A DNA stretch of 64,000 bases from a beta proteobacterium CB (GTDB lineage: Bacteria > Pseudomonadota > Gammaproteobacteria > Burkholderiales > Burkholderiaceae): assembly GCA_000342265.1 (NCBI GenBank), contig CP004348.1, positions 744,001 to 808,000 on the forward strand. The letters are read 5' to 3'. The notes beneath the pieces are model-generated. The model saw only the letters and a program-made list of their open reading frames with translations, was not told where the DNA came from and ran no database searches. Numbering within the stretch: the first letter of the stretch is position 1; every line of letters begins with the position of its first letter. The translations under genes were made by a program, and so were the position numbers. This document shows, one piece after another, positions 12,871-56,018 of the stretch.

Positions 12871-12890
12871 ATTGGTGTTGAGCTAGGCAG

Positions 12891-35177: not shown

Positions 35178-36200
35178 ATGAAATCTTTCTTGAAAAAAGC
35201 GTTAGTAATTAGCGCGATTTCAATTGCCCCAGTTGCTTTTGCGGCTGATATGACTGGTGCTGGTGCCACCTTCCCATACCCAATTTATGCAAAGTGGGCT
35301 GAAGCTTACAAGGCAAAAACAGGTTCAAATATGAATTACCAATCCATTGGTTCTTCAGGCGGCATTAAACAGATCAAAGCGAAGACAGTGGACTTTGGAG
35401 CCTCAGATAACCCAGTGAAGTTTGATGATCTAGAAAAAGATGGCCTGGTTCAGTTCCCGGCAATTATTGGTGGCGTTGTCCCCGTTATTAACGTTGAAGG
35501 TGTTAAGCCTTACGAGCTCAAGTTGTCGCCAGATACCTTGTCTGATATTTTTCAAGGTGCAATTACCAACTGGAATGATAAGCGTATTGTGTTGAACAAT
35601 CCAGGCATGAAGATGCCCGACTTACCAATCACCGTAGTTCATCGTGCCGATGGTTCGGGTACCACAGCAATTTTTACAAACTATTTGGCCAAAGTTAGTC
35701 AGAACTGGAAAGACGCAGTTGGCGAAGGTGCAGCGGTTAAGTGGCCAGCAGCCTCATCAGTGGGTGGTAAGGGTAATGAAGGTGTTGCCGCCAACGTTTC
35801 TCGTGTTAAAGGTGCCATTGGTTATGTTGAGTATGCCTATGCCAAGAAAAACAAAATGACTAGCGTTTCTTTAAAGAATAAAGACGGTCAATTTGTACAG
35901 CCAGACGATCTCACTTTTGCAGCAGCAGCTGCTGGTACAGATTGGTCTAAGATTCCTGGTATGGGTACATTTATTACCAACGCTTCTGGTGCTAAATCAT
36001 GGCCAATTACAGGCGCATCTTTCATCTTGATCTACAAGAATCCAGAGAACAAAGCTAATGCTGCTGAAGTCATTAAGTTCTTTGATTTTGCTTTCAAGGA
36101 AGGTAAGAAAATGGCCGAAGAGTTGGACTATGTTCCAATGCCTGACGTCACTACAGATTTCATTCGCAAGAATGTATTCTCTAAAGTGGTTACTAAGTAA
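35178..36200 (+). CDS. pstS: Phosphate ABC transporter substrate-binding protein
   Basis: A 340-residue periplasmic phosphate-binding protein with a Sec signal peptide (cleavage likely after VAFA near residue 22). Phosphate-site motifs are GAGATFPYPIYAKW, SIGSSGGIKQI, FGASDNPV and HRADGSGTTAIFT. It heads the pstSCAB-phoU-phoBR cluster behind a PhoB box. A strong hairpin terminator follows, which would make pstS more abundant than the membrane genes. Confidence 0.97.
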   Translation: MKSFLKKALVISAISIAPVAFAADMTGAGATFPYPIYAKWAEAYKAKTGSNMNYQSIGSSGGIKQIKAKTVDFGASDNPVKFDDLEKDGLVQFPAIIGGVVPVINVEGVKPYELKLSPDTLSDIFQGAITNWNDKRIVLNNPGMKMPDLPITVVHRADGSGTTAIFTNYLAKVSQNWKDAVGEGAAVKWPAASSVGGKGNEGVAANVSRVKGAIGYVEYAYAKKNKMTSVSLKNKDGQFVQPDDLTFAAAAAGTDWSKIPGMGTFITNASGAKSWPITGASFILIYKNPENKANAAEVIKFFDFAFKEGKKMAEELDYVPMPDVTTDFIRKNVFSKVVTK

Positions 36201-36234
36201 GGTTTGGGACTGCTGTCTATTGGTCTCTCATATG

Positions 36235-36269
36235 ACAGCTCCACCGAGGGTGGGGCTGTTTCAATTTTT
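36235..36269 (+). terminator. Hairpin terminator between pstS and pstC
   Basis: ACAGCTCCACC (36235-36245) pairs with GGTGGGGCTGT (36249-36259), 11 bp with one G-T pair and a 3-base loop, then TTCAATTTTT. It is probably partial, since pstCAB have no other evident promoter. Confidence 0.75.
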
Positions 36270-36283
36270 AAATAAGCTCAATC

Positions 36284-37273
36284 ATGATTGAATCAACTCA
36301 GTCGCACTCAGCGCCCACGGCTCAAGCCCTTCGGATTGCTAAGTTGCAACGTATTCAAGATTTTTTATTTCACGGTATTACACAATTTTTTGCTCTATCA
36401 GTGCTGATTGCGCTGGTTGGAATCATCATTTCACTGATCATTAATGCTTGGCCTGCACTTGATAAATTTGGAATCGGATTCTTCTTTACTAAAGAGTGGG
36501 ACATTGTTAACGGTGAATTTGGTGGCCTAATCGCGATCTACGGTACATTGGCGACCTCCTTGATTGCGCTGCTCATTGCCGTGCCTTTGAGCTTTGGTAT
36601 TGCGGTATTTTTAACTGAGTTATGTCCCGGTCCATTGCGTAGACCTCTAGGTACCGCTGTTGAATTGCTTGCAGCCGTTCCTTCTATTATTTATGGCATG
36701 TTTGGTTTATTTATATTTGCACCACTTTTTGGTGAGTATATTCAGCCAGCCTTAGCGGCAACACTGGGTCAAATCCCGGGTTTAGGAATTTTGTTCTCCG
36801 GTGCTTTTAACGGTATTGGTATTCTGTGTGCAGGTCTTATTTTGGCTATGATGATTCTTCCTTTCATTGCCTCAGTTATGCGCGATGTATTTGAAATCGT
36901 TCCACCTGTTCTTAAAGAGTCGGCGTATGGTATCGGCTGCACTACTTGGGAAGTGGTAAAAAATATTGTTCTTCCCTATACCAAGGCTGGCGTAATTGGT
37001 GGCGTCATGCTTGGATTGGGTAGAGCTCTTGGTGAAACAATGGCAGTCACCTTTGTGATTGGTAATGCCCACCGTCTTTCTGCATCTCTCTTTGCCCCAG
37101 GTAACTCAATTGCCTCTACATTAGCTAATGAGTTTGGTGAAGCTGAGCTTGGACCACATTACTCCTCTTTATTTGCGCTTGGTCTTGCACTATTCATGAT
37201 TACATTCATCGTTTTAGCGATTGCTAAGTGGATGTTGATGAATATGGAGAAAAAGCAAGGACTTAAAACATGA
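36284..37273 (+). CDS. pstC: Phosphate ABC transporter permease PstC
   Basis: A 329-residue inner-membrane permease of the high-affinity phosphate transporter. Six or more helices are visible. [20 protein letters not shown] and the EAA-like loop ([20 protein letters not shown] near residue 208) are typical of PstC. The stop overlaps the pstA start by 4 bases. Confidence 0.96.
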
Positions 37274-38136
37274 ACGGCCTATCCAATATTAATCCAGCAG
37301 TTTTTGCTAAACGTAAGCGCGCCAACAAGATTGGCCTGGTCCTCTCTACTGGGGCTATGGTGCTTGGTATGGTTTTCCTCCTCTGGATTTTGAGCATCCT
37401 CTTTATTAAGGGATTCTCCTCCATTAATATGGACGTATTCCTGCACAGCACTCCTGCGCCAGGATCTGAGGGTGGTGGTCTTGCTAATGCGATTGTAGGC
37501 AGCTTGATGATTGTGGCTAGCTGTACTTTGATCAGCACCCCAATTGGTGTTTTAGCTGGCTTATACCTGTCTGAATATGGTGATAGAAGCAAGGTTGCGT
37601 CCGTAACGCGCTTTGTTACAGACATCATGCTCTCAGCACCGTCAATTGTTATTGGCTTATTTGTCTATGCAATTGTGGTTGCTCAGGTCCGTCACTTCTC
37701 TGGTTGGGCCGGCACTATCGCCTTAGCCTTAATTGCTATTCCAGTAGTAGTTCGCACAACAGAGAATATGTTGCGTTTAGTTCCGGGTAGTTTACGTGAA
37801 GCTGCTTATGCCTTAGGTACGCCAAAGTGGAAAGTAGCTTTCATGATCACTTTACGTGCTGCCCAAAGTGGTGTGATCACTGGTATTTTATTGGCCTTGG
37901 CTCGAGTCAGCGGTGAAACTGCACCATTGCTTTTTACGGCGCTGAATAATCAATTCTTTACAACCAATATGAACGCACCGATGGCTAACTTGCCTGTGGT
38001 GATCTTCCAGTTTGCGATGAGTCCCTACGATAACTGGGTCGACCTTGCCTGGGCTGCAGCCTTACTAATTACTTTTGCAGTATTAGGGCTCAATATTCTC
38101 GCCCGGGTAGTCTTCCGTGAAAAAGTACAAAGCTAA
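37270..38136 (+). CDS. pstA: Phosphate ABC transporter permease PstA
   Basis: A 288-residue partner permease. It shows [30 protein letters not shown] and the EAA-like loop [19 protein letters not shown] near residue 176. The start overlaps pstC by 4 bases, and the stop overlaps pstB by one base, indicating coupled translation. Confidence 0.96.
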
Positions 38137-38984
38137 TGGCCAATATGAAAACAATGTTTGACTTAAATACAATCGATAGTCAAGGAATCAGAATGAACGA
38201 CAACACTAATATCCAAACCGCTAAAGAAGTAAAAAATGCCATTGAGGTACGTAACCTTAATTTTTTCTACGGAGCCTTTCAGGGCCTTAAGAACATCAAT
38301 TTAGATATTGAAGAGGGCAAGGTGACCGCTTTTATTGGTCCATCTGGATGTGGTAAATCTACTCTTCTGAGAACTCTCAATCGTATGTACGATCTATACC
38401 CTGGTCAGCGCGCAGAGGGTGAGATTAATTTCTACGGTCAAAATATTTTAGAGTCTGGTCAGGATCTGAACTTATTGCGCTCACGAATCGGTATGGTTTT
38501 CCAAAAGCCAACCCCATTCCCAATGTCTATTTATGAAAACATTGCATTTGGCGTACGTTTATACGAAAAACTGTCTCGATCTGAGATGGATGAGCGCGTT
38601 GAATGGGCCCTCAATAAGGCGGCCCTTTGGAATGAAGCAAAAGACAAGCTCAATCAAAGTGGACTATCACTGTCTGGTGGTCAACAGCAGCGCTTGTGTA
38701 TTGCTCGTGGTGTAGCTGTAAAGCCATCCGTTATTTTGCTTGATGAACCAACCTCAGCATTGGATCCAATCTCAACTGGCAAGATTGAGGAGTTAATCAA
38801 CGAACTTAAGCATGAGTACACGATTGCGATCGTTACGCACAACATGCAGCAAGCAGCCCGCGTCTCCGATTACACTGCATATATGTACTTGGGAAGTTTG
38901 ATTGAGTATGGCAAGACGGACGAAATCTTTATCAAGCCCAAGCGTAAAGAAACAGAAGATTACATTACCGGCCGTTTTGGTTAA
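38136..38984 (+). CDS. pstB: Phosphate ABC transporter ATP-binding protein PstB
   Basis: A 282-residue ATPase of the phosphate transporter. Walker A is [17 protein letters not shown], the signature is [16 protein letters not shown], and Walker B is [15 protein letters not shown]. The first 30 residues are an extra polar segment; an internal ATG at 38193 (MNDNTNIQ) is a possible alternative start. The start at 38136 overlaps the pstA stop (TAATG). Confidence 0.95.
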
Positions 38985-38996
38985 TTGGAGAAATAA

Positions 38997-39704
38997 ATGC
39001 CAGATAAACACCTATCATCACAATTTGATGCAGATTTAAATTCCCTCTCTAGTCGTTTGTTAGAAATGGGTGGCTTGGTCGAATCGCAGATTTCAACTGC
39101 TATGCGCGCCTTCACCCAGATGGATATCGATACTTGTAACGTTGTTATCGCTAATGAGAAAACGGTTAATGATCTAGAAATTCAGATTGACTTGGCCTGT
39201 ACCGAATTGATTGCGCGTCGTCAACCAACGGCTCGTGACTTACGTTTGGTGATGGCTGTGTCTAAGGCGATCACCAATTTAGAACGCGCTGGCGATGAGG
39301 CCGAGCGTGTTGCTAAGCGCACTAAGCGTTTAATCGAATCTGGTGCAACCCATAACATCAATGTTGCTGAAATTCGTTTGTCTGGTCAGATGGCTATTTC
39401 ATTATTGCGCCGTAGTTTGGATGCGTTTGCGCGTTTAGATACAAGCGCAGCTGCTGAAGTGGTTCAAGAAGACCGTCAGATTGATGAAGAGTTTAGGGGC
39501 TTTGTGCGTAAGCTGATCTCCTACATGATGGAAGATCCACATACGATTTCAACAGGACTCGATATGCTCACGATTGCTAAAGCGATTGAGCGTATTGGTG
39601 ATCACGCAAAGAATATTGCGGAGTTCGTGATTTATATTGCTAAAGGCTCTGATGTGCGCCATATTCCTCATGAGGATTTGGTTCGCGAGGCTAATAAACC
39701 TTAA
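38997..39704 (+). CDS. phoU: Phosphate signalling protein PhoU
   Basis: A 235-residue all-helical protein with two PhoU repeats, each carrying the metal-binding E/D-xxxD pattern (ITNLERAGDEAERVAKR and AIERIGDHAKNIAEFV). It links the state of the Pst transporter to PhoR and so represses the Pho regulon when phosphate is plentiful. It sits between pstB and phoB. Confidence 0.96.
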   Translation: MPDKHLSSQFDADLNSLSSRLLEMGGLVESQISTAMRAFTQMDIDTCNVVIANEKTVNDLEIQIDLACTELIARRQPTARDLRLVMAVSKAITNLERAGDEAERVAKRTKRLIESGATHNINVAEIRLSGQMAISLLRRSLDAFARLDTSAAAEVVQEDRQIDEEFRGFVRKLISYMMEDPHTISTGLDMLTIAKAIERIGDHAKNIAEFVIYIAKGSDVRHIPHEDLVREANKP

Positions 39705-39725
39705 TCAATCAAGGCAGAATCTCTG

Positions 39726-40439
39726 ATGACTCACCGAATATTGATTGTTGAGGATGAGCCTTCGATTGCTGAGTTAATTGCAATCAATCTGACTCATGCT
39801 GGATATGAGGTTGAAAAAGCATTGCAGACGGATGTAGCCCTCAATATGATGCGCGATCAATTGCCTAGCTTATTAATCTTGGATTGGATGTTGCCAGGTA
39901 AATCAGGCGTTCAATTTGCCAAAGAGTTAAGGGCAAATGAGCGCACCCGATCACTCCCCATTTTGATGTTGACTGCAAAGAGTGAAGAGTCAGATAAGGT
40001 TTTAGGCTTGGATTCTGGGGCTGATGACTATGTGACCAAGCCATTTTCTCCTAAGGAGCTGGTTGCTAGGGTAAAGGCACTTTTGCGCCGCCAAACTCCA
40101 ATCGAGGATACCGGACCGCTTTCGGTTGGACCCCTAAGACTTGACCCTGTCTCCCACCGCATTACAGCCGTTTGGCCAAATCTGGATCCACAGCCTATAT
40201 CTCTGGGCCCAACGGAATACAGATTGCTGCAATTTATGATGGCCAATCCTGAGAGGGTTCATTCAAGGACCAACTTGCTGGATAAAGTTTGGGGCAATGA
40301 GGTTTATATAGAAGAGCGTACCGTGGATGTTCACATCAAGCGCTTGCGGGCTGCTTTAGCGCCTACTGACTGCGACCGCTATATAGAAACAGTCCGTGGA
40401 AGTGGTTATCGCATTACAAAGATGCCAACCCAGACCTAA
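39726..40439 (+). CDS. phoB: Phosphate regulon response regulator PhoB
   Basis: A 237-residue OmpR-class regulator. The receiver domain has the acidic pair (VEDEPS), the phospho-acceptor Asp in LILDWMLPG, Thr in MLTAKSEESD, and Lys in YVTKPFSPKEL. The C-terminal winged helix ends TVDVHIKRLRAAL and VRGSGYRI. It is expected to bind the PhoB boxes seen before pstS, plcP and ppk2. Confidence 0.96.
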   Translation: MTHRILIVEDEPSIAELIAINLTHAGYEVEKALQTDVALNMMRDQLPSLLILDWMLPGKSGVQFAKELRANERTRSLPILMLTAKSEESDKVLGLDSGADDYVTKPFSPKELVARVKALLRRQTPIEDTGPLSVGPLRLDPVSHRITAVWPNLDPQPISLGPTEYRLLQFMMANPERVHSRTNLLDKVWGNEVYIEERTVDVHIKRLRAALAPTDCDRYIETVRGSGYRITKMPTQT

Positions 40440-40499
40440 CTTCACCCTATCTGGCTAAGGTTTTTTAAGTTCTTGGCTCAGATGTTCTAAGATTGCCTA

Positions 40500-41807
40500 A
40501 TGCTCTCCGTAATTACCCGTTTTGCGCTGCTCATTATTTTGGCATTTTTTGCTGGATTAATGGCTTTATCGAATCTTGGTCCATTGTTTGGCATCGCCGC
40601 TGGAATCGCTGTTCTTGCAATTCCACTGATTTATTCATACATCAATCTTGCTCGTCTACGTAAATACACTCTAAAGGACGCCCTAGAAAGCATGTCTTTG
40701 CCAAGTGGCTACTGGGAAGAGATTTTTTTTCGCATTCAAAGATTGGTAAGAGGTTTAAAGCAACAAATTCGATCCATTGAAAAGCAACACAATCGATTTA
40801 TTGAGGCTTTTCAGGCATCGCCTAATGGCATCCTGATGCTGGATGATCAGGATCAGATTGAATGGTGCAACGCAATTGCTGAGCGTTTTTTTGGACTCAA
40901 CTTTAAGCGGGACGTAATGCAGAGGGTGAACTTCCTGATACGTCGACCCGAATTTGTTCAGTACCTATATAAGCGCCAATTTGAAGAGCCTCTCTTGCTG
41001 GAGCGCATGGGCCCCAAAGCAAATTTGAGCTTAATGTTGCAGGCTTTTCCTTTCGGCGATAAGAGACATCTTTTATTGGTGCAGGATGTCACGGATTTGC
41101 AGAAGGCGGATGCAATGCGTCGTGATTTTGTGGCCAATGTCTCCCATGAGATGCGCACACCAATCACGGTATTGATGGGTTTTTTAGAGACGATGCAGTC
41201 ATTGGATTTAGATAAGGCTCAGCAGCATCAGTATTTTGAAATGATGATGTCGCAAGCTCAAAGGATGAAAAGTCTAGTAGAGGACTTATTAACTTTGGCT
41301 AATCTTGAGGCCAATACTTTGCCAGCCCCAATGCAACTCATCCAAATCCCAACCTTAATGGCATTGCTAAAAAATGATGCGGAGGCTTTATCCCAAGGTC
41401 GCCACGCATTTAACTTTGATGTTTCTAGTGCCGATAATTTAATGGGTGAAGAGCGGGAAATTCTCTCCGCATTTGGTAATCTGGTTTCTAATGCTATTCG
41501 TTATACGCCCGACATTGCCTCAATTAGCGCAAACTGGCGCATCAATGCACAGGGTGAAGGGGAGTTCTCTGTAACGGATACGGGTCCAGGAATTGCTTCT
41601 GAGCATTTGTCACGTTTAACTGAGCGTTTTTATCGAGTAGATCGAAGCCGGTCTCGTGACACAGGAGGTACCGGCTTAGGGCTTGCGATTGTTAAGCATA
41701 TTGCCAATCGACATCAAGCCCAATTAATTATTGAAAGCACTCCTGGTAAGGGAAGTACTTTTACACTGCGCTTCCCTAAAGAGAGAATCGCACACCTAGA
41801 TAGTTAA
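40500..41807 (+). CDS. phoR: Phosphate regulon sensor kinase PhoR
   Basis: A 435-residue membrane histidine kinase. Two hydrophobic segments at the N-terminus (about residues 4-24 and 27-46) anchor it. A PAS-like region (residues about 95-190, beginning FIEAFQASPNGILML) follows, then the HisKA motif FVANVSHEMRTPITVL with the phosphorylated His, the N box (FGNLVSNAIRYTP) and the G boxes DTGPGI and GGTGLGLAIVKHI. It is the last gene of the pst-pho run. In several Burkholderiales ppk1 comes next; here it does not. Confidence 0.95.
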   Translation: MLSVITRFALLIILAFFAGLMALSNLGPLFGIAAGIAVLAIPLIYSYINLARLRKYTLKDALESMSLPSGYWEEIFFRIQRLVRGLKQQIRSIEKQHNRFIEAFQASPNGILMLDDQDQIEWCNAIAERFFGLNFKRDVMQRVNFLIRRPEFVQYLYKRQFEEPLLLERMGPKANLSLMLQAFPFGDKRHLLLVQDVTDLQKADAMRRDFVANVSHEMRTPITVLMGFLETMQSLDLDKAQQHQYFEMMMSQAQRMKSLVEDLLTLANLEANTLPAPMQLIQIPTLMALLKNDAEALSQGRHAFNFDVSSADNLMGEEREILSAFGNLVSNAIRYTPDIASISANWRINAQGEGEFSVTDTGPGIASEHLSRLTERFYRVDRSRSRDTGGTGLGLAIVKHIANRHQAQLIIESTPGKGSTFTLRFPKERIAHLDS

Positions 41808-45058: not shown

Positions 45059-45070
45059 TTGCTAGTCGAT

Positions 45071-45577: not shown

Positions 45578-45618
45578 CAAAATGACATCAAAGCATCCCT
45601 TAATCCCCTTATCTGCCA

Positions 45619-47373: not shown

Positions 47374-47386
47374 GCGTCTTAGCTTG

Positions 47387-48103: not shown

Positions 48104-48168
48104 TATTCCTCTCCCTTTCATATCGCGTTGTCTTGTTCCTGAAACATTAGGAGTTCAGTATTCAAAAG

Positions 48169-48381: not shown

Positions 48382-48417
48382 ATAATTACCAGTAGACTAC
48401 TGCTTGGTTTCATGAAT

Positions 48418-48435
48418 GTGTCACGTTATCTTCAT
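48418..48435 (+). promoter_or_regulatory. Weak candidate PhoB box before ppx
   Basis: GTGTCAC-GTTA-TCTTCAT keeps the 7-4-7 spacing but matches the consensus repeats at only about 9-10 of 14 positions, and no good -10 box follows at the right distance. Given only because the next gene is exopolyphosphatase. Confidence 0.25.
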
Positions 48436-48480
48436 AAAATAGACATATTCAAATAAATTAGCTTAGTTATTGGGAATATT

Positions 48481-50046
48481 TTGACCCTTTTTAAAGACTT
48501 CTCCGGAAAACAATCCTCTGACTTAGTCGCAGCTGTCGATTTAGGTTCCAATAGTTTTCGCATGTTGGTGGCCCAGGTTGTTAAGACACCATCTGGTACT
48601 CAGCTCCGCCCCATTGATACGCTGCGCGAATCTGTCCGCCTTGCGGCTGGATTGACTGATAGCAAGTTATTGGGCAATGACGCCTATCAGCGTGGTATCT
48701 CCGCTATTCATCGCTTTGGGGAGCGTATTCGCGGTTTTGACCCCTCCAGGGTTCGAGCAGTTGCTACCAATACTTTGCGCGTGGCCAAAAATGCCTCGAA
48801 TTTTGTTCGGGATGCTGAGGAGGCTCTCGGCTTTCCTATTGAGGTGATTGCCGGTGTAGAAGAGGCTCGACTAATTTATATTGGGGCAGCCCATGAGGTT
48901 TCGGCGGTCCAGGGAAATCGTTTAGTAGTTGATATTGGCGGTGGCTCGACTGAGTTGATCATTGGCAAGGGATACGAGCCAAAGCTGATGGAAAGTCTTT
49001 ACATTGGCTGTGTCTCCCACAGCTTGCGTTTTTTCCCAAAAGGTAATATCGATGCGCATGCCTTTAAGGAGGCGGAGTTGGCTGCGCGCCGTGAGATTCA
49101 GGTGATTGCGGGTGCTTATTTAAAAAGCGGCTGGAAGCAGGTCATTGGCTCATCTGGCACAGCACGTGCCTTGGCTGATTTGATTGCTGAAAATAATTTT
49201 AATTGCCATGTCGACGAAGGTCTGACTATGGGTCGGGTTAATGGCGCCAGCGGATTAATCACGCGTGATGGCCTCAGAGCCATGAAAAAACATCTCCTCA
49301 AATATGATCACATCAGCCAAGTTGAGTTAGTTGGTCTTAGAGATGATCGTCGTGCCGTTTGGCCTGGCGGTCTGGCGATTATGATTGCCGTCTTTGATGA
49401 GCTTGGCATTGAGAGTATGGAAGTTACTGATGCCGCCTTACGTGTTGGTGTCCTCTATGACTTATTGGGGCGCTCGCAACATGACGACATGCGCTTCGTG
49501 ACAGTAGAGCAATTTATGCAACGCTATGCTGTAGATCGGGATCAGGCAAAGCGAGTAGGGCACTATGCCGCAGAATTTTTAGCTCAACTACCCAAGCCTG
49601 ATTCTGAAAGTAGATCCGATAACATTGCCCTGCTTCAGTGGGCTGCAAACCTTCATGAAATTGGCCTGTCGATTTCTCATAACGGTTATCACAAGCATTC
49701 TGCTTATATTGCTGGAAATGCAGATATGCCAGGATTTTCTAAGAACGATCAAGCCAGACTGGCTGCGCTCTTAATAGGACATACTGGAAAGTTGGGAAAG
49801 TTAGCTAATAACCCTAGCTTTAAAGATTGGCGCATGTTGTTTTGCTTGCGTCTGGCTCAGGCTCTATGCCGAGGCAGAAGTGATGCCAATTTGCCCAAAG
49901 TTAAAGTATCTGAGCATGATGGATCTTACTTGGTTAGTCTCTCGAAGGACTGGGCAAGAGAGCATCCCTTAACTGAATTTAGTCTACTAAAAGAAGCGGC
50001 CGAATGGGATCGTATCGGCCGGCCATACAAAGTAAGTTTGAAGTAA
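48481..50046 (+). CDS. ppx: Exopolyphosphatase / pppGpp phosphohydrolase family
   Basis: A 521-residue Ppx/GppA protein of the ASKHA fold. It shows AAVDLGSNSFRMLVAQV at the start, AGVEEARLIYIGA with the catalytic Glu near residue 132, LVVDIGGGSTELIIG near 153, and a C-terminal HD-like half (LHEIGLSISHNGYHKHS). It removes terminal phosphate from polyphosphate, or acts on pppGpp. The start is a TTG at 48481 with GGGA five bases upstream. In related genomes ppk1 lies just before ppx; here ppx stands without it. Confidence 0.93.
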   Translation: MTLFKDFSGKQSSDLVAAVDLGSNSFRMLVAQVVKTPSGTQLRPIDTLRESVRLAAGLTDSKLLGNDAYQRGISAIHRFGERIRGFDPSRVRAVATNTLRVAKNASNFVRDAEEALGFPIEVIAGVEEARLIYIGAAHEVSAVQGNRLVVDIGGGSTELIIGKGYEPKLMESLYIGCVSHSLRFFPKGNIDAHAFKEAELAARREIQVIAGAYLKSGWKQVIGSSGTARALADLIAENNFNCHVDEGLTMGRVNGASGLITRDGLRAMKKHLLKYDHISQVELVGLRDDRRAVWPGGLAIMIAVFDELGIESMEVTDAALRVGVLYDLLGRSQHDDMRFVTVEQFMQRYAVDRDQAKRVGHYAAEFLAQLPKPDSESRSDNIALLQWAANLHEIGLSISHNGYHKHSAYIAGNADMPGFSKNDQARLAALLIGHTGKLGKLANNPSFKDWRMLFCLRLAQALCRGRSDANLPKVKVSEHDGSYLVSLSKDWAREHPLTEFSLLKEAAEWDRIGRPYKVSLK

Positions 50047-50053
50047 TTCATTA

Positions 50054-50074
50054 GGGGGTTTTCTGAGCCCCCCA
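50054..50074. terminator. Hairpin between convergent ppx and olsB
   Basis: GGGGG (50054-50058) can pair with the C-run at 50068-50073 across a loop of about nine bases; GCTTTCTT follows on the plus strand. Short stem, modest T-tract. Confidence 0.5.
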
Positions 50075-50080
50075 GCTTTC

Positions 50081-51019
50081 TTATAGGCCCAAGAAATGCT
50101 TAGCGTAACGTGGATTAATTTCTGAGAGACGCAGCATTGTTAAAACGTCTGCAGTATTAAAATCTGGATCCCATGCGGGTGCACTACAAATCTTGGCGCC
50201 TAATTTGAGGTAGCCCTTAATCAAAGGTGGTGGCTCCACTTCCAGACCACCGTTTAGTCGGTCAAGGGGCAAGGGTAGGCGAGGGAATGCATGATTCTCT
50301 ACTGGCGCCATTTGCTCATTACTTAGAGAGTTATAGAGACTTGCAGCGAAGTGACCGCCATCAGCCATTGGGATGCTCGCGCAACCCAACATGATTTCAT
50401 AATGATGCTTTTGCATATATTGAGCCAAACCACTCCAAAGAGCCATAATGACTGCCCCAGAGCGGTAATCGGCATGAACACAAGACCTGCCAAGCTCAAC
50501 CATCTTCGGGCGTAAGTGATTTAAGCGTGTTAAATCAAACTCAGAATCAGAGTACAGGCGACCAATCTCCATAGCTTTATGAGGTGGGAGAACTCGATAG
50601 GTTCCCACTACCTTGAGCGATTCTTGATCACGAATTAGGAGGTGATCGCAATAGGCATCAAACTCATCAACATCGAGACCCTCAGAATTGGCTGGTAGGT
50701 TTGCGCCCATCTCGTCTGCAAATACCTTGTAGCGCAAGCGCTGAGCTTCTTTAATTTCACTTGGATTGCTTGCCCAAGTAATTTGAAATGCAGGGCGCTT
50801 AGGTTTTGCAATTGCCTTATCGGTTTGTACTGGCTCTATCGCTGTTAATTCAGTGCGAGTACGCAAGGCAAATTTTTTGCCAAATAGCTTTTTAGCTATC
50901 TTTTTAGAAAATAACTTCTTTAGTGCTTCAGCTTTGTGTTTCTTTAATTTTCTTGGTTTACCTTCAAAACGGGAATTGAAGATATCGAATGCGCCTAATG
51001 GGTTTGGAATGTCAGACAT
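50081..51019 (-). CDS. olsB: Ornithine lipid N-acyltransferase, OlsB-like
   Basis: A 312-residue GNAT-fold acyltransferase of the OlsB/hemolysin-like group, which transfers a 3-hydroxyacyl chain to ornithine to give lyso-ornithine lipid. Family blocks are EAQRLRYKVFADEMGA near residue 90, VVGTYRVLPPHKAM near 137, VELGRSCVHADYRSGAVIMA near 172, GCASIPMADGGHFAASLY near 205 and the C-terminal PPLIKGYLKLGAK with AWDPDFNTADVL. The first 75 residues are an extra, very basic segment. It is the last gene of the plcP-agt-dgkA-olsB run, 45 bases behind dgkA. Some family members act on other amines, so the substrate is inferred. Confidence 0.82.
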   Translation of the reverse strand: MSDIPNPLGAFDIFNSRFEGKPRKLKKHKAEALKKLFSKKIAKKLFGKKFALRTRTELTAIEPVQTDKAIAKPKRPAFQITWASNPSEIKEAQRLRYKVFADEMGANLPANSEGLDVDEFDAYCDHLLIRDQESLKVVGTYRVLPPHKAMEIGRLYSDSEFDLTRLNHLRPKMVELGRSCVHADYRSGAVIMALWSGLAQYMQKHHYEIMLGCASIPMADGGHFAASLYNSLSNEQMAPVENHAFPRLPLPLDRLNGGLEVEPPPLIKGYLKLGAKICSAPAWDPDFNTADVLTMLRLSEINPRYAKHFLGL

Positions 51020-51064
51020 AGTTTTCCTTGATATGTATCTTTAGATCGTAAGTGCACTGCATGA

Positions 51065-51466
51065 CTAATTGATGACAAGCGGTATGCAAATCGTTGCCCA
51101 GAAAGCAGTTGCAATGAGAAGGGATAGCATGACAGCGGCCGACCCAAAATCTTTAGCTCTTTTGGAGAGATCATGGTGATCAAATGAGATCCGATCAATT
51201 GCTGCTTCAACGCTGGAATTGAGGAGCTCAACAACCAAAACCATAATCAATGAAGAAATGAGGACGCATTTTTCAAGAGGGCTAATAGGCAAGAAAAATG
51301 CGATAGGAGAGAGTACGGTTAGTAAAGTCAATTCCTGTCTAAATGCACTCTCTTCTTTGAATGCGTATACAAACCCACACCAAGAATTTTTTGCTGCATA
51401 CCAGGCTCGAGTGAACCCGCGATTTCCTTTGTGCGGATTTTGATTAATGTTGTAAGGTGTAGTCAA
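51065..51466 (-). CDS. dgkA: Diacylglycerol kinase
   Basis: A 133-residue membrane enzyme of the prokaryotic DgkA family that phosphorylates diacylglycerol to phosphatidic acid. The signature VVELLNSSVEAAIDRIS (catalytic Glu and Asn) and KRAKDFGSAAVMLSLL is complete. Three membrane helices are evident. The N-terminal 25 residues are polar, with FTRAWYAAKNSWCGFVYAF leading into the first amphipathic helix. It lies 8 bases behind agt, where it could return diacylglycerol made by PlcP to phospholipid synthesis. Confidence 0.92.
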   Translation of the reverse strand: MTTPYNINQNPHKGNRGFTRAWYAAKNSWCGFVYAFKEESAFRQELTLLTVLSPIAFFLPISPLEKCVLISSLIMVLVVELLNSSVEAAIDRISFDHHDLSKRAKDFGSAAVMLSLLIATAFWATICIPLVIN

Positions 51467-51474
51467 AATAAACT

Positions 51475-52503
51475 CTAGGCTAATGCTGTAATGTGAACTT
51501 CTGTTGACGGTACTGGCTTAAGGTGATTTGCAAACTGCTCAGATGCTGCACGCCATGAGAACTTCTCGGCATGTGCTCTAGCGACCTCGCGAGGAATTTT
51601 CAGGGCCTGTAGGCAGGCCTCCCGGAGATCTTCATGCATTGCACCAGCTGGCGAGCTTCCTAGAACATCAATTGGGCCGGTTACTGGATAGGCAGCTACT
51701 GGCGTGCCGCAGGCCATGGCTTCGAGTAAAACCAAGCCAAAGGTATCTGTCTTGCTTGGAAATACAAATACATCAGCTGCCGCATAAACCTTGGCTAATT
51801 CATGTTGTTGCAAGACGCCAAGATAATTGATGTCAGGATACTTTTCCTTGATGCCGGCCATGGCTGGGCCATCACCAACAACCCATTTAGAGCCTGGAAG
51901 ATCAATCTCTAAAAAGGCGTTGATATTCTTTTCAACCGCAACTCGGCCAACGTAGAGAAAAATGGGGTGAGCAGTATTGAGGGCTTTGGAGTCTTGCATT
52001 TTGAAGATATCCAAATCCACGCCACGTGACCACAGTACAACATTTGATAGGCCATATTTCTCAAGGTCGTCCTTCACCACAATCGTTGGTGCCATTACTG
52101 CCATAGATGGACCGTGGAACCAGCGGATAAAGGCATAGGTGATGCCGAGCGGGATACCTGTGCGGGCCTTGACGTATTCAGGGAAACGAGTGTGATAGGC
52201 GGTTGAGAATGGAAGCCTATTCTTCACCGCATAAGAGCGTGCTGATAAACCTAGAGGCCCTTCCGTTGCAATATGCATTGCATCTGGAGCGAATTCTTTA
52301 ATGCGTCGAGCTACTTCCTTTCCTGGAAATAGGGAGAGGGCAATATCTGGGTAAGTAGGGCAAGGAATTGATTTGAATCCATTTGGGGTGATCATCTCAA
52401 CCTCATGACCCATCGCAATCAATTCAGCACGAGTTTGTTTTAGTGTTCGCACCACTCCATTTACTTGTGGATCCCATGCGTCAGTAATGATCATAATTTT
52501 CAT
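51475..52503 (-). CDS. agt: Glycosyltransferase, likely diacylglycerol glucosyltransferase (Agt)
   Basis: A 342-residue GT4-family glycosyltransferase. The N-terminal domain begins MKIMIITDAWDPQVNGVVRT. HIATEGPLGLSARSYAV and FSTAYHTRFPEYVKARTG are typical of the group annotated near plcP in many proteobacteria. The C-terminal domain has the nucleotide-sugar site FVFPSKTDTFGLVLLEAMAC with its E-x7-E pattern. Its start overlaps the plcP stop by 4 bases. That pairing is known from marine and rhizobial bacteria that replace phospholipids with glycolipids under phosphate limitation. The sugar cannot be read from sequence. Confidence 0.83.
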   Translation of the reverse strand: MKIMIITDAWDPQVNGVVRTLKQTRAELIAMGHEVEMITPNGFKSIPCPTYPDIALSLFPGKEVARRIKEFAPDAMHIATEGPLGLSARSYAVKNRLPFSTAYHTRFPEYVKARTGIPLGITYAFIRWFHGPSMAVMAPTIVVKDDLEKYGLSNVVLWSRGVDLDIFKMQDSKALNTAHPIFLYVGRVAVEKNINAFLEIDLPGSKWVVGDGPAMAGIKEKYPDINYLGVLQQHELAKVYAAADVFVFPSKTDTFGLVLLEAMACGTPVAAYPVTGPIDVLGSSPAGAMHEDLREACLQALKIPREVARAHAEKFSWRAASEQFANHLKPVPSTEVHITALA

Positions 52504-53309
52504 AAGGCAGCCTCTTTAATGAGAGATTCAACAACGGGTTGGAGAGTAATTTCGGGGCTTACAACTGGGTCGCCCTTGATGTGAGTCCAGTAAATGATTT
52601 TGAGTTCGCCGGTTGTCGTTTCAACAAGCGCAGAAAGGCTTTCAACCCAATCGCCATCGTTGCAGTAAAGGAGTCCATCGATCTCACGAATTTCAGCTTT
52701 GTGGATATGACCACACACCACGCCATCACAATCGCGTAAACGCGCTTCTCTAGCCATGATGTGCTCGAAATCGGCTATGTAACTTACTGCGTTTTTAACT
52801 TGATGTTTTAAGTATTGCGAAAGAGACCAATATTGCAGGCCCATCTTGACGCGCAACATATTGAAATAGCGGTTGATGTACAAAATAAAGGAGTACAGAG
52901 AGTCACCAACATAAGCTAGCCACTTTGCATATTGCATCACGCCATCGAATAGATCGCCATGGGTTACCCAAAGTTTTCTACCATCAAGCGTTGTGTGAAT
53001 AACCTCTTCTTGAACTTTAATATCGCCAAAAGACATGCCGAAGTATTGGCGTGCAGCTTCGTCATGATTGCCGGGGATGTAAATGACCTCGGCACCTTTT
53101 CGGGCTTTACGTAATAGCTTTTGGACTACGTCATTGTGGGCTTGAGGCCAATAAAATGATTGCTTAAGGCGCCAGCCGTCGATAATGTCACCGACTAGAT
53201 AAAATTTATCAGCCTCATTGTGTTTTAAGAAATCGAGGAGGTAGTTTGCCTGACACCCTGATGTTCCTAGGTGTACATCTGAAATCCAGATAGCTCTGTA
53301 ATGCATCAT
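52500..53309 (-). CDS. plcP: Metallophosphoesterase, phospholipase C-like PlcP
   Basis: A 269-residue calcineurin-like phosphoesterase. The five metal motifs are in order: ISDVHLGT (D-x-H), LVGDIIDGWRL (GD-xx-D), YIPGNHDE (GNHD), VTHGDLFDGV and VCGHIHKAEI (GH-x-H), ending with NDGDWVESLSALVE. Such proteins are often annotated as LpxH-like, but this set, with SFYWPQAHNDVVQKLLRKAR, fits PlcP, which cleaves phospholipids to diacylglycerol and a phospho-head group during phosphate starvation. It is the first gene of the minus-strand lipid operon and has a PhoB box upstream. Confidence 0.85.
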   Translation of the reverse strand: MMHYRAIWISDVHLGTSGCQANYLLDFLKHNEADKFYLVGDIIDGWRLKQSFYWPQAHNDVVQKLLRKARKGAEVIYIPGNHDEAARQYFGMSFGDIKVQEEVIHTTLDGRKLWVTHGDLFDGVMQYAKWLAYVGDSLYSFILYINRYFNMLRVKMGLQYWSLSQYLKHQVKNAVSYIADFEHIMAREARLRDCDGVVCGHIHKAEIREIDGLLYCNDGDWVESLSALVETTTGELKIIYWTHIKGDPVVSPEITLQPVVESLIKEAAL

Positions 53310-53330
53310 GATTAAGCATTAAGCCTACTC

Positions 53331-53362
53331 ATTATGTATGCATCATGACACTTTTAAGTCAG
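53331..53362 (-). promoter_or_regulatory. PhoB box and promoter of plcP operon
   Basis: Read on the minus strand: CTGACTT (53362-53356), AAAA, GTGTCAT (53351-53345), giving 11 of 14 consensus positions and the same AAAA spacer as the pstS box. CATAAT (53336-53331) follows after 8 bases as a -10 box with one mismatch. The plcP ATG is 22 bases further on. Confidence 0.7.
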
Positions 53363-53373
53363 TTTAATGACTT
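53356..53373. repeat. Inverted repeat between plcP and olsA
   Basis: AAGTCA (53356-53361), GTTTAA, TGACTT (53368-53373): perfect 6-bp arms. One arm overlaps the first repeat of the minus-strand PhoB box, so the site could be a shared element for the two divergent genes. A TATATT at 53378-53383 could be the -10 box of olsA. Confidence 0.45.
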
Positions 53374-53394
53374 GATTTATATTGTTGCTTCTAT

Positions 53395-54171
53395 ATGAAT
53401 AAATTACCGCTAAATATCAAATTGCAACAGGCCTCTAAATTTTTGAAGATTTGGCTTTGGCTTCAAATAGGGGCACACGTTGTTAGTGGGGTTTGCACTC
53501 TCTCTTTTGTCTTCCCATTTCTCAAGAGACCTCAGAAAGATCAAAAAATTCAAGCATGGTCAAAGCGGCTCTTAAAAATATTTAACATCCATCTGTCCGT
53601 TCAGGGGGATCAGCTATTAATGGATTCTCCGTATCTAATGACATCTAACCATATCTCATGGATAGATATTCATGTCATCAATGCATTCAAGCCCATTAGA
53701 TTTGTAGCTAAGTCGGAAGTAGAAGGGTGGCTAGTATTTGGCTGGATGGCTAAACAGCTTGGCACTGTATTTATTCGTCGGGATAGTTCTCGCCATGCAA
53801 GGCTGGTGGTTGGTCAAATGGCGGAGGTTTTGCAAACTGAATCGATTTGTATCTTTCCTGAGGGCACTTCTACCGTTGGAGAGTGTGTTTTACCATTCAG
53901 GCCCAATTTATTTGAGGCGGCAATTGTTTCACGGGCTCCAGTTTTTCCTTTGGCGATCCAATATATTTCCAAGTCCACTGGAGAGCGAAGTGAAGCCCCA
54001 GCCTTCGTTGGTGATATGGGTTTGTTGGAGTCGATGGCGAACATTCTGAGTACGCGTGATTTGCAGGCCACTTTGACAGTTTTGCCACCTTACGAGCATG
54101 ACTTAGAGCCATCCTTGGATAGGAAGCAGCTAGCAGCCCATGCTCAGGAGCTGATTGCAAAGACCATTTAG
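53395..54171 (+). CDS. 1-acylglycerol-3-phosphate-type acyltransferase, OlsA-like
   Basis: A 258-residue membrane-associated PlsC-family acyltransferase. An N-terminal hydrophobic helix (about residues 18-44) is followed by the HX4D-type motif TSNHISWIDIHV, then FVAKSEVEGWLVFGWMAKQL, FIRRDSS, and FPEGTSTVGECVLPF. In several proteobacteria such a gene beside olsB is olsA, which esterifies lyso-ornithine lipid. Its divergent position next to the plcP-agt-dgkA-olsB operon supports that reading. Ordinary phosphatidic acid synthesis (PlsC) is the alternative. Confidence 0.85.
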   Translation: MNKLPLNIKLQQASKFLKIWLWLQIGAHVVSGVCTLSFVFPFLKRPQKDQKIQAWSKRLLKIFNIHLSVQGDQLLMDSPYLMTSNHISWIDIHVINAFKPIRFVAKSEVEGWLVFGWMAKQLGTVFIRRDSSRHARLVVGQMAEVLQTESICIFPEGTSTVGECVLPFRPNLFEAAIVSRAPVFPLAIQYISKSTGERSEAPAFVGDMGLLESMANILSTRDLQATLTVLPPYEHDLEPSLDRKQLAAHAQELIAKTI

Positions 54172-54177
54172 CTGCAT

Positions 54178-54211
54178 TTGTAATAAAAGTGTCATATCCT
54201 TGGGATACAAA
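54178..54211 (+). promoter_or_regulatory. PhoB box and promoter of ppk2
   Basis: TTGTAAT (54178-54184), AAAA, GTGTCAT (54189-54195), then exactly 10 bases and TACAAA (54206-54211) as a -10-like hexamer. It matches the consensus at 11 of 14 repeat positions, with the same spacer as the other two boxes. It starts 7 bases after the olsA stop codon. Confidence 0.7.
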
Positions 54212-54234
54212 GCTAGTATCGGTTTGAGGAAAAA

Positions 54235-55140
54235 ATGACATCAAAACACAAAGAGATGGCTGAGTGGTATCAGCGTGCACAAGAAGAAATCTTGGATAGC
54301 ATGGATGAAGAGCTCGAAATGGAGCTCGATGATGATCGCCTGTCGCAGGACGGTGGCAGTAGCTCTATTATTCCGCGAAACGTTTACTTTAAGGAGTTAT
54401 TTCGTCTTCAAGGTGAATTAGTAAAGCTCCAAGATTGGGTTGTTGAAAATAAACTCAAGGTGGCTGTGTTGTTTGAAGGCCGCGATTCTGCGGGTAAGGG
54501 CGGAGCTATCAAACGTATTACCCAGCGACTCAATCCCCGTGTTTGTAAAGTAGTCGCGCTGACCGCACCTAGCGAACGTGAAAAGACCCAGTGGTATTTT
54601 CAGCGTTATGTATCCAATTTACCCGCAGGCGGTGAAATCGTTCTCTTTGATCGCAGCTGGTATAACCGGGCCGGTGTTGAGAAGGTCATGGGATTTTGTA
54701 CTGATGATGAGTACGAAGAATTTTTACGCACGGTTCCCGAGTTTGAGCGCATGATCATTCGCTCTGGGATTATATTAATTAAATACTGGTTCTCAATTTC
54801 AGATGATGAGCAGTACAACCGCTTCATGATGCGTATCCATGATCCTTTGAAGCAGTGGAAGTTAAGCCCAATGGATCTCGATGCACGTCGTCACTGGGAA
54901 GCCTACACAAAGGCAAAAGAGACCATGTTAGAGCGCACCAATATCCCTGAGGCACCATGGTGGGTTGTTGCTGCAAACGATAAAAAGAAGGCGCGCTTAA
55001 ACTGCATCTCCCATCTACTTGATCAGATTCCTTACAAAGAGATTGATCATCCAGAAATTACTCTGCCAGCCCGTGTCCATAATCCAGACTACTTGAGGGG
55101 TCCGGTTCCCAAGGAAATGTACGTCCCCGAGATCTACTGA
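54235..55140 (+). CDS. ppk2: Polyphosphate kinase 2 (first copy)
   Basis: A 301-residue PPK2 that moves phosphate between polyphosphate and nucleoside di- or monophosphates. Walker A is FEGRDSAGKGGAIKRI near residue 80, the lid-region block is TQWYFQRYVSNLPAGGEIVL, Walker B is LFDRSWYNRAGVEKVMGF, and the C-terminal DPLKQWKLSPMDLDARRHW is present. The first 45 residues are strongly acidic (MDEELEMELDDDRL) and outside the core fold. GAGG precedes the ATG. It lies behind a PhoB box and 48 bases before the CYTH-like gene. Confidence 0.93.
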   Translation: MTSKHKEMAEWYQRAQEEILDSMDEELEMELDDDRLSQDGGSSSIIPRNVYFKELFRLQGELVKLQDWVVENKLKVAVLFEGRDSAGKGGAIKRITQRLNPRVCKVVALTAPSEREKTQWYFQRYVSNLPAGGEIVLFDRSWYNRAGVEKVMGFCTDDEYEEFLRTVPEFERMIIRSGIILIKYWFSISDDEQYNRFMMRIHDPLKQWKLSPMDLDARRHWEAYTKAKETMLERTNIPEAPWWVVAANDKKKARLNCISHLLDQIPYKEIDHPEITLPARVHNPDYLRGPVPKEMYVPEIY

Positions 55141-55155
55141 TCTTGCTTAGATAGT

Positions 55156-55185
55156 GTTAACCTCTCATGAACATGAGGGGTTAAC
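55156..55185 (+). promoter_or_regulatory. 14-bp hairpin hiding the ribosome site of the next gene
   Basis: GTTAACCTCTCATG (55156-55169) and CATGAGGGGTTAAC (55172-55185) pair over 14 bp with one G-T pair and only AA between them. The 3' arm contains GAGGGG, the only ribosome site for the ATG at 55189, so the folded RNA would block translation. There is no T-run, so it is not a standard terminator. The DNA palindrome could equally be an operator. Confidence 0.6.
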
Positions 55186-55188
55186 CGA

Positions 55189-56016
55189 ATGAAATCTAAG
55201 CTGGCAATTACCAATAGAGAATTTAAGCTTCTCATCAAACCACAGGGTCTTGATCGAAGAAGCAGGATTACCGCTTTAAGTGATCAGATCCTTCAGTTTT
55301 GCAAGAAAAGTAAAGTAGAGTTTTTCCATCTGGATAACGCTACTACAGGGCTACGTAATATCTATTTTTACGATACTCCCGGCGAAGATTTTCGGCGCAA
55401 CAATATTATTCTGCGCGTCCGCGAATCACGACAAAACATCTGGGTCGATGATTGGTGTGAAGTAACCCTAAAGTGCCGGACTCAAGACCTTGCCCAATCC
55501 CATCGATTTGATCCGTCGCCAAAGAAAAGCATTCAATCCAGATTGCGCCTCAAGGAAGAGATTCTGAGGGGCGATGCCCTGGGCTCAACAAGATCAATTT
55601 ATTCGAACAACGCAATTCTTGATGCGGTACCTATCGATAGTTTGTTTGATCGGTCTCTTGCTAGCGCCATTAAATTCTTTCCTGGTTTAAGCGCTCTATC
55701 TATTAACAAGCAGGAGCCTCTTCGCATTGTTGGCGGACGCACGAATAAAATTCTAGAAGCATGCTTGCCAATTGGGAATTTAGTTTTTGGTGATGGTGTT
55801 CAGGCGCATTGCGAGATAGCGATTTGGATGAAAAGTGTAGGCGACCCGATTGTTGGTGAGCTTGCTTTTTCATATCGCGTTAACGATGCGAATAGAGGTC
55901 AGGCAAAGGCTCATAAACGAGCAGATAAGTTTTTTAAAAAACTTCAGATTGAACTATCAAGCTGGCTTGAGATTGGAAGCACAAAAACGGCTTTAGTCTA
56001 TGGAAAGCCGGAGTAA
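55189..56016 (+). CDS. CYTH-like protein next to ppk2
   Basis: A 275-residue soluble protein resembling the CYTH (triphosphate tunnel) fold. REFKLLIKP at residues 10-18 is a degenerate form of the ExExK motif. YFYDTPGEDF with IILRVRE (residues 59-79) and CEVTLKCR (90-97) match the CYTH pattern of substrate-binding basic residues. RLRLKEEI near 125, CEIAIWM and GELAFSYR could be later tunnel strands. A Lys-rich helix (RADKFFKKLQIELS) follows near the end. Known relatives hydrolyse or bind triphosphate or polyphosphate, which suits its place after ppk2. The match is by pattern only. Confidence 0.55.
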   Translation: MKSKLAITNREFKLLIKPQGLDRRSRITALSDQILQFCKKSKVEFFHLDNATTGLRNIYFYDTPGEDFRRNNIILRVRESRQNIWVDDWCEVTLKCRTQDLAQSHRFDPSPKKSIQSRLRLKEEILRGDALGSTRSIYSNNAILDAVPIDSLFDRSLASAIKFFPGLSALSINKQEPLRIVGGRTNKILEACLPIGNLVFGDGVQAHCEIAIWMKSVGDPIVGELAFSYRVNDANRGQAKAHKRADKFFKKLQIELSSWLEIGSTKTALVYGKPE

Positions 56017-56018
56017 GC

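What the first reader, a model, noticed from the sequence alone, without database searches (positions are those of the whole stretch)
50081..54171. Five-gene locus for replacing phospholipids: plcP-agt-dgkA-olsB with divergent olsA
Seen: a minus-strand run of metallophosphoesterase, GT4 glycosyltransferase (4-base overlap), DgkA-type kinase (8-base gap) and OlsB-like acyltransferase, facing a PlsC/OlsA-like acyltransferase. Known: PlcP plus Agt makes glycolipids from phospholipids under phosphate starvation in some bacteria, OlsB plus OlsA makes ornithine lipid, and DgkA recycles diacylglycerol. Inferred: this locus joins both phosphorus-free lipid routes and the recycling step in one Pho-controlled unit. 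I know the parts from separate systems, but not this combined arrangement.
Basis: partly seen in the sequence, partly recalled or inferred. Interest (0 to 1): 0.85.

Follow-up and report, generated by a model that had tools for sequence, protein, structure and literature searches.

The report
Phosphate-starvation membrane-lipid replacement gene cluster
A lake bacterium keeps together, beside its phosphate-sensing genes, the genes predicted to swap phosphorus-containing membrane fats for phosphorus-free ones; the enzymes and the idea are known, while this compact arrangement, shared by most of its genus, was not found in the papers searched.

Summary
In detail: olsB-dgkA-agt-plcP on the minus strand face olsA (50081-54171) in a 2.05-Mb Polynucleobacter genome. 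The metallophosphoesterase falls on the PlcP side of an 88-row tree; the genome has a separate LpxH that passes the LpxH cut-offs. OlsB and OlsA fit their families best but score below NCBIfam cut-offs. The five-gene order is complete in 28 of 37 genus genomes and in 76 of 80 nearest loci, the other 4 cut by contig ends. It occurs in 0 of 70 plcP loci elsewhere in the order, though plcP-agt (30/70) and plcP-agt-dgkA (8/70) recur. Predicted Pho boxes lie between plcP and olsA and before olsB, ppk2, ppx and pstS: 4 of the window's 5 best sites lie in 0.8% of its length; 0 of 300 column-shuffled matrices reach 4. DgkA is the genome's only PF01219 protein and MdoG is absent, so PlcP is the only diacylglycerol source I found. 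Joint induction of PlcP, DagK, OlsA and OlsB is already published for Pseudomonas putida. The physical union, its spread through the genus and its probable transfer to another family look new. Function is inferred, not measured.

The parts
50081..51019 (-). olsB-like ornithine N-acyltransferase (312 aa, with a cationic N-terminal extension of about 75 aa)
   Evidence: NCBIfam OlsB 178.9 bits, below its 350 cut-off; OlsF 65.4, GlsB 27.9; 34% identical over 268 columns to an S. meliloti protein that passes the OlsB cut-off with 511.5 of 320 bits
51065..51466 (-). dgkA, prokaryotic diacylglycerol kinase (133 aa)
   Evidence: PF01219 111.8 bits; the only PF01219 match in the genome
51475..52503 (-). 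agt, GT4 glycosyltransferase, presumed diacylglycerol glycosyltransferase (342 aa)
   Evidence: Pfam GT4/GT1 domains; the two best NCBIfam hits are lipid glycosyltransferases, both far below cut-off; beside plcP in 30 of 70 loci outside the genus
52500..53309 (-). plcP, intracellular phospholipase C-type metallophosphoesterase (269 aa)
   Evidence: on the PlcP side of an 88-row tree, 100/100 support, apart from LpxH; metal-site residues invariant in 26 aligned rows
53395..54171 (+). olsA-like lyso-ornithine-lipid O-acyltransferase (258 aa)
   Evidence: NCBIfam OlsA 124.4 bits (cut-off 300) against AGP_acyltrn 83.7 (cut-off 102.95); 104-186 bits to 11 OlsA homologues of other genomes, 53 bits to own PlsC
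53345..53371 (-). predicted Pho box array: three elements spaced 11 bp in the plcP/olsA divergent promoter
   Evidence: best score 13.2, rank 5 of 127,966 in the window; at least 10 in 91 of 99 distinct relatives
51061..51078 (-). predicted Pho box before olsB, overlapping the 3' end of dgkA
   Evidence: top-scoring site in the window, 17.25; at least 10 in 56 of 92 distinct relatives
54178..54195 (+). predicted Pho box before ppk2
   Evidence: score 15.5, rank 3; at least 10 in 67 of 76 distinct relatives
54235..55140 (+). ppk2, polyphosphate kinase 2 (flanking gene with Pho box)
   Evidence: TIGR03707 373.7 bits, over its cut-off
48407..48424 (+). predicted Pho box before ppx
   Evidence: score 11.67, rank 9; at least 10 in 73 of 89 distinct relatives
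48481..50046 (+). ppx/gppA-type exopolyphosphatase (flanking)
   Evidence: PF02541 and PF21447
35100..35117 (+). predicted Pho box before pstS (positive control)
   Evidence: score 17.24, rank 2
35178..41807 (+). pstS-pstC-pstA-pstB-phoU-phoB-phoR block
   Evidence: Pfam: PBP_like_2, two BPD_transp_1, ABC_tran, PhoU, response regulator, histidine kinase (weak PhoR match, below cut-off); the gene names beyond the families are read from order

Best explanation
This is a PhoB-controlled membrane-remodelling locus. When phosphate runs out, PhoB would bind the 11-bp-spaced box array between plcP and olsA and the box before olsB. PlcP then hydrolyses phospholipids to diacylglycerol plus a phosphoalcohol. 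Agt glycosylates the diacylglycerol to a phosphorus-free glycolipid. OlsB acylates ornithine and OlsA adds the second acyl chain, giving ornithine lipid. DgkA, the genome's only one, rephosphorylates spare diacylglycerol to phosphatidate, so it sets the split between glycolipid and remade phospholipid and keeps free diacylglycerol low. The flanking ppk2 and ppx carry predicted Pho boxes, tying membrane phosphorus to polyphosphate. Shown here by sequence: gene content, order, conservation, PlcP/LpxH separation, Pho-box-like sites, single DgkA. Inferred from family knowledge: every catalytic step, the sugar used, PhoB binding and induction.
For: Family assignments; PlcP/LpxH tree, 76 against 12 rows, 100/100, and a separate LpxH over its cut-offs; OlsA nearer to OlsA than to PlsC; order complete in 28 of 37 genus genomes and 76 of 80 nearest loci; Pho boxes against controls: agt upstream 0 of 100, dgkA upstream 1 of 93, olsB 3' end 2 of 97, random pieces 20 of 565, and 0 of 300 shuffled matrices; one DgkA and no MdoG while the E. 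coli control rings; one UDP-sugar dehydrogenase family member, so UDP-glucuronate is possible. In print (passages): PlcP, DagK, OlsA and OlsB rise together at low phosphate in P. putida; plcP-agt1 has a Pho box in P. aeruginosa.
Against: No lipid or expression data. OlsB (178.9 of 350), OlsA (124.4 of 300) and Agt (85.4 of 480 at best) miss the NCBIfam cut-offs. Five genus genomes lack dgkA between agt and olsB; in 3 of those 5 only a distant DgkA (39-48% identity) is found, so this dgkA is not obligatory. The olsB box reaches 10 in only 56 of 92 relatives. The phoA-like gene nearby has no good box (best 3.6). Two genus genomes rated 99% complete (G017, G027) lack a working plcP and any dgkA match. 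The target regions for plcP/olsA and ppx were longer (median 122 and 150 bases) than the 90-base controls.
Confidence: 0.85

Rival explanations
1. The metallophosphoesterase is an LpxH-type lipid A enzyme and the acyltransferases make ordinary phosphatidate, so the locus is housekeeping lipid synthesis.
For: The best NCBIfam and PDB sequence hits of the phosphoesterase are LpxH; OlsA belongs to the PlsC superfamily.
Against: LpxH score 44.5 against a cut-off of 134, like S. meliloti PlcP's 38.1, while another protein of the genome has 268.7; tree split 100/100; separate PlsC-type protein; locus absent or broken in some genus genomes rated 99% complete.
Confidence: 0.03
2. The locus works mainly to replace phosphatidylethanolamine by ornithine lipid; the diacylglycerol from PlcP goes back to phosphatidate through DgkA, and Agt has a minor or different acceptor.
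For: P. putida raises PlcP, DagK, OlsA and OlsB; G170 keeps dgkA, olsB, plcP and olsA but only a 32%-identical glycosyltransferase; Agt's top family is a phosphatidylglycerol glycosyltransferase, far below cut-off.
Against: agt overlaps plcP by 4 bases and is 91-96% identical to the window in L055-L076, where olsA is 55-68%; plcP-agt is the commonest pair outside the genus (30 of 70); plcP-agt is needed for a glycolipid in Methylosinus (PMC9239053, passages).
Confidence: 0.2
3. The genes are neighbours by chance or ancestry in a small genome, without common regulation.
For: Small genome; in 29 of 70 loci outside the genus none of the other four genes was found near plcP.
Against: The same genes gather in other arrangements in other families; conserved Pho boxes.
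Confidence: 0.05

Closest known systems
Pseudomonas putida BIRD-1 low-phosphate lipid set (PlcP, DagK, OlsA, OlsB), PMC5082522 (passages)
   Same: Four of the five functions; enriched at low phosphate and called Pho-dependent in the discussion (the phoBR-mutant list in the passage names PlcP and OlsAB, not DagK)
   Different: Locus tags put olsA and olsB side by side (0974, 0975) but plcP far off (1390); no Agt named in the set
Pseudomonas aeruginosa PA3219-PA3218 (plcP-agt1), agt2 and olsBA, PMC8528852 and PMC9804370 (passages)
   Same: Pho-box plcP-agt operon; both glycolipid and ornithine lipid under low phosphate
   Different: plcP-agt1 and olsBA are described as separate operons; 'diacylglycerol kinase' does not occur in either text
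Methylosinus trichosporium OB3b plcP-agt with OlsA/OlsB, PMC9239053 (passages)
   Same: plcP-agt needed for glucuronic acid diacylglycerol; ornithine lipid also made
   Different: olsA and olsB carry different, non-consecutive locus tags; 'dgk' does not occur in the text
Burkholderia s.l. olsB with Pho boxes, PMC7814305 (passages)
   Same: Same order; predicted Pho boxes before olsB; P. xenovorans swaps phosphatidylethanolamine for ornithine lipids at low phosphate (their data not shown)
   Different: 'PlcP' does not occur in the text
plcP-agt-dgkA runs of other Burkholderiales (L047, L179, L180, L182, L183, L184, L200, L212)
   Same: Same three genes in the same order
   Different: olsB and olsA are not joined to it (L212 has olsB near, facing it)

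Membership tests
PlcP (intracellular phospholipase C) | Calcineurin-type metal site (DxH, GDxxD, GNHD, H, GHxH; motif names recalled) | tested here: met
   D11, H13, D41, D44, N81, H82, D83, H117, H201, H203 invariant in 26 rows, the S. meliloti protein included
PlcP (intracellular phospholipase C) | Groups with a characterised PlcP and apart from LpxH | tested here: met
   same side of a 100/100 branch as the S. meliloti protein, 49.6% identity; that this S. meliloti gene beside the AHL synthase and LuxR genes is the studied PlcP is recalled
PlcP (intracellular phospholipase C) | Hydrolyses phospholipids to diacylglycerol | not testable with these tools
   needs enzyme assay
LpxH | Score over the family cut-off | tested here: not met
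   44.5 of 134 and 37.6 of 190.35; the genome's other candidate has 268.7 and 227
Agt (diacylglycerol glycosyltransferase) | GT4 domains, next to plcP | tested here: met
Agt (diacylglycerol glycosyltransferase) | Glycosylates diacylglycerol | not testable with these tools
   no characterised Agt sequence was compared; sugar donor unknown
OlsB (ornithine N-acyltransferase) | Score over an NCBIfam OlsB cut-off | tested here: not met
   178.9 of 350 and 178 of 320
OlsB (ornithine N-acyltransferase) | OlsB is the best family against OlsF, GlsB and autoinducer synthases | tested here: met
   178.9 against 65.4, 27.9 and 27.3 bits
OlsA (lyso-ornithine-lipid O-acyltransferase) | Score over an NCBIfam OlsA cut-off | tested here: not met
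   124.4 of 300 and 113 of 300
OlsA (lyso-ornithine-lipid O-acyltransferase) | Closer to OlsA homologues near olsB than to PlsC | tested here: met
   104-186 bits to 11 homologues, 53 bits to own PlsC
DgkA (prokaryotic diacylglycerol kinase) | PF01219 over cut-off | tested here: met
   111.8 bits against 22.3
Pho regulon member | Pho-box-like site in the promoter, conserved | tested here: met
Pho regulon member | PhoB-dependent induction | not testable with these tools
   no expression data

The most novel reading that the evidence does not exclude
The five genes are a phosphorus-sparing membrane island that moves between small-genome lineages. Within it DgkA serves only PlcP-made diacylglycerol, acting as a reversible switch between glycolipid and remade phospholipid. 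A 1.28-Mb genome of another family (G170, L210) carries an olsB-plcP/olsA block with dgkA, ppx and ppk1 beside it, whose PlcP and OlsB nest inside the Polynucleobacter clade.
Probability: 0.35. Interest if true: 0.6.

Novelty: new variant of a known kind. Interest (0 to 1): 0.45.

Why it matters
The PlcP-type remodelling papers seen here concern marine, soil, methane-oxidising and clinical bacteria. A locus with Pho boxes shared by most of Polynucleobacter predicts that this common freshwater plankton genus (its abundance is recalled) can cut its phosphorus need by both known phosphorus-free routes, and gives marker genes to test that in lake metatranscriptomes. The kinase beside PlcP and Agt poses a clear question: what decides whether diacylglycerol becomes glycolipid or phospholipid. 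Relatives with the locus whole, without its dgkA, decayed or lost offer ready comparisons.

Tried and rejected
LpxH reading: rejected. PlsC reading of OlsA: rejected. RNA element: no Rfam match at 47000-56000 at gathering threshold. Sigma-70 and terminator scan: 5 promoter-like sites against 8.5 in shuffles and 3 terminator-like against 4.7, so uninformative. Structure of PlcP: not obtained (below). B. cenocepacia phosphorus-stress proteomics (Shropshire 2021, cited in PMC8528852): not held, so what may be the nearest published comparison in the order was not read. PDB sequence searches: LpxH chains best for PlcP and only weak hits, autoinducer synthases first, for OlsB. Caulobacter glycolipid paper PMC6445935 (passages): no 'PlcP' in the text. 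RCA roseobacters PMC7779409 (passages): olsA-olsB pair without PlcP. Single-gene AU tests for the G170 transfer did not reject a genus clade without it (p 0.108 OlsB, 0.384 PlcP); only the joined set did, barely (p 0.0448, group chosen after seeing the trees). The count of three ATGAC-like elements (92 of 101) is loose and had no control.
Full report
Setting. The window lies in a 2,045,720-base single-contig genome. Its PlcP is 100% identical to that of Polynucleobacter sp. 78F-HAINBA, so the genus is Polynucleobacter. Upstream in the window is a pst-phoU-phoB-phoR block (ORFs; Pfam, where the PhoR-specific match is below cut-off), then a phoA-like gene, an mgtC-like gene (name by eye) and ppx; downstream is ppk2.

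Observation. Pfam gives the expected families. None of the five passes an NCBIfam cut-off: OlsB 178.9 of 350, OlsA 124.4 of 300, Agt 85.4 of 480 at best; DgkA has no NCBIfam hit but 111.8 bits in Pfam.

PlcP or LpxH. The genome has four Metallophos matches. One other is a 262-aa protein that scores 268.7 bits for LpxH (cut-off 134), whereas the window protein has 44.5 and the S. meliloti PlcP 38.1. In a tree of 88 rows, 76 PlcP-type sequences including the S. meliloti one and 12 LpxH-type sequences fall on opposite sides of a 100/100 branch; the bootstrap had not fully settled and both stems are long. The window protein is 49.6% identical to the S. meliloti one and 22.6% to its own LpxH. That the S. 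meliloti gene beside the AHL synthase and LuxR genes is the studied PlcP is recalled.

OlsA, OlsB, DgkA. OlsA scores 104-186 bits against 11 OlsA homologues of other genomes, and 53 bits against the genome's own PlsC-type protein. The genome has two PF01553 proteins and one PF01219 protein. OlsB is 34% identical to an S. meliloti protein that passes the OlsB cut-off (511.5 of 320). The genome has no MdoG match; the control rang in E. coli. MdoG belongs to glucan synthesis, the textbook diacylglycerol source for E. coli DgkA (recalled). So PlcP is the only diacylglycerol source I found; I did not search for all others.

Conservation in the genus. Of 37 genus genomes (own plus 36), 35 have the locus or its remains (by tblastn, which does not test reading frames). 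In 28 the order olsA/plcP-agt-dgkA-olsB is complete (one of them, G025, has a stop in its olsB match). L049 (G023) has the order with plcP and olsA each split in two matches. Five (L035, L079-L082) lack dgkA between agt and olsB; L079 also ends before olsA, and G006 (L081) has a stop in its plcP match. In L054 (G017) the start of plcP abuts the end of olsB, with agt and dgkA gone. The other two genomes are G022 (83% complete, 480 contigs) and G027 (99% complete, one contig), which has only an LpxH-type match and no olsB, dgkA or ppx match; the ppx search of G027 had no control. Among the best 80 of 121 matching records, 76 have the full order and 4 end at a contig edge; these partly repeat the G-handle genomes and were found with peptide patterns from this PlcP, so are close kin.

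Outside the genus. Of 150 genomes drawn across the order, 73 have plcP at E 1e-30 or better, 3 of them in the genus. I read 70 loci from 69 of the other 70 genomes (G066 and a second, stop-bearing copy in G050 were left out; G051 has two). With fixed identity and distance limits: plcP-agt 30 of 70, with dgkA too 8 of 70, olsB within 6 kb 12 of 70, all five 0 of 70, none of the other four 29 of 70. Contig ends and stretches of at most 18 kb make these lower bounds. Of 10 loci fetched around olsB elsewhere (L084-L093), 7 have olsA beside it, so in Polynucleobacter that pair is split, with plcP-agt-dgkA between.

Pho control. A matrix from nine recalled E. coli Pho boxes was run over the window. 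The five best of 127,966 scored positions are before olsB (overlapping the dgkA end), before pstS (the positive control), before ppk2, one elsewhere (3940), and between plcP and olsA; the site before ppx ranks 9. The five target regions are 0.8% of the window and hold 4 of the top 5; of 300 column-shuffled matrices none reached 4 and the most was 2. The regions were fixed after the first scan had been seen, which weakens this test. In distinct relatives a score of at least 10 is reached in 91 of 99 (plcP/olsA), 67 of 76 (ppk2), 73 of 89 (ppx) and 56 of 92 (olsB), against 0 of 100 (agt upstream), 1 of 93 (dgkA upstream), 2 of 97 (olsB 3' end) and 20 of 565 (random 90-base pieces, some of which may include the sites); the plcP/olsA and ppx regions are longer than the controls. 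The plcP/olsA site shows three elements 11 bases apart in the aligned sequences printed (output cut in the middle). The consensus CTGTCATNNNNCTGTCAT is printed in PMC8528852 (passage).

Lateral transfer. G170 (1.28 Mb, another family) has dgkA, olsB, plcP facing olsA, then a PAP2 gene and a GT4 of 32% identity to Agt, ppx and ppk1. Its OlsB and PlcP each fall with Polynucleobacter (97/96 for a 14-row set; 98/97 for a 7-row set) and in the joined tree inside it, next to the lineage without dgkA at this place (99/96). A genus clade without G170 is rejected only marginally (p 0.0448) and not by single genes (0.108 and 0.384); G170 is a long branch. Transfer between the two lineages is likely, its direction unsettled.

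Mechanism. PlcP makes diacylglycerol, Agt turns it to glycolipid, DgkA returns it to phosphatidate, OlsB and OlsA make ornithine lipid. These steps rest on family knowledge and on passages of PMC3972451, PMC8528852 and PMC9239053. The genome has one UDP-glucose/GDP-mannose dehydrogenase family member, so glucuronate lipids are possible but not shown.

Literature. Ten paper searches listed no paper that by title or abstract start concerns this locus; none of 5.39 million open-licence papers holds both 'Polynucleobacter' and 'PlcP'. Listed papers other than those cited were not opened, and subscription papers are mostly not held. In print (passages): PlcP, DagK, OlsA and OlsB enriched at low phosphate in P. 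putida, plcP-agt1 and olsBA in P. aeruginosa, Pho boxes before olsB in Burkholderia s.l..

Verdict. A real, conserved, probably Pho-controlled lipid-replacement locus: a new variant, by arrangement and host group, of a known kind of system. Enzyme functions and lipid products remain to be measured.

Noticed in passing
L210 (G170) 6616-15552: Another family's 1.28-Mb genome holds dgkA, olsB, plcP facing olsA, PAP2, GT4, ppx and ppk1; PlcP and OlsB nest in the Polynucleobacter clade, suggesting lateral transfer.
   Followed up: partly
window 50795-51019 (OlsB N-terminus): OlsB has a strongly cationic N-terminal extension in most genus members (KKLFGKKFA-type core, net charge about +11 to +15), weaker (+5 to +7) in the lineage without dgkA at this place and absent in G170; perhaps a membrane anchor.
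   Followed up: partly
L054 (G017), L049 (G023), genome G027: Natural decay of the locus: a deletion bringing plcP and olsB remains together, split plcP/olsA/phoA, and absence with no ppx or dgkA match.
   Followed up: partly
L065-L069, L072, L073, L075: A second PPK2-family gene (52-56% identical to ppk2) stands next to ppk2 on the other strand in these relatives.
   Followed up: no
window 45059-47373: A small phosphatase-like ORF (name by eye) and a phoA-like gene lie in the phosphate region without a good Pho box before phoA (best score 3.6).
   Followed up: no
window 53395-54171: olsA is much less conserved than plcP and agt in the genus: 55-68% against 86-96% identity to the window in L055-L076.
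   Followed up: no
window 55189-57109: A 275-aa ORF of unknown family and two short ORFs that look like chromate-transporter halves follow ppk2 (names by eye).
   Followed up: no
L235 (Mitsuaria sp. 7 plasmid NZ_CP011515.1): plcP sits next to ppk1 and ppx on a 263-kb replicon and is annotated as UDP-2,3-diacylglucosamine diphosphatase, like the other annotated hits among the 25 listed.
   Followed up: no
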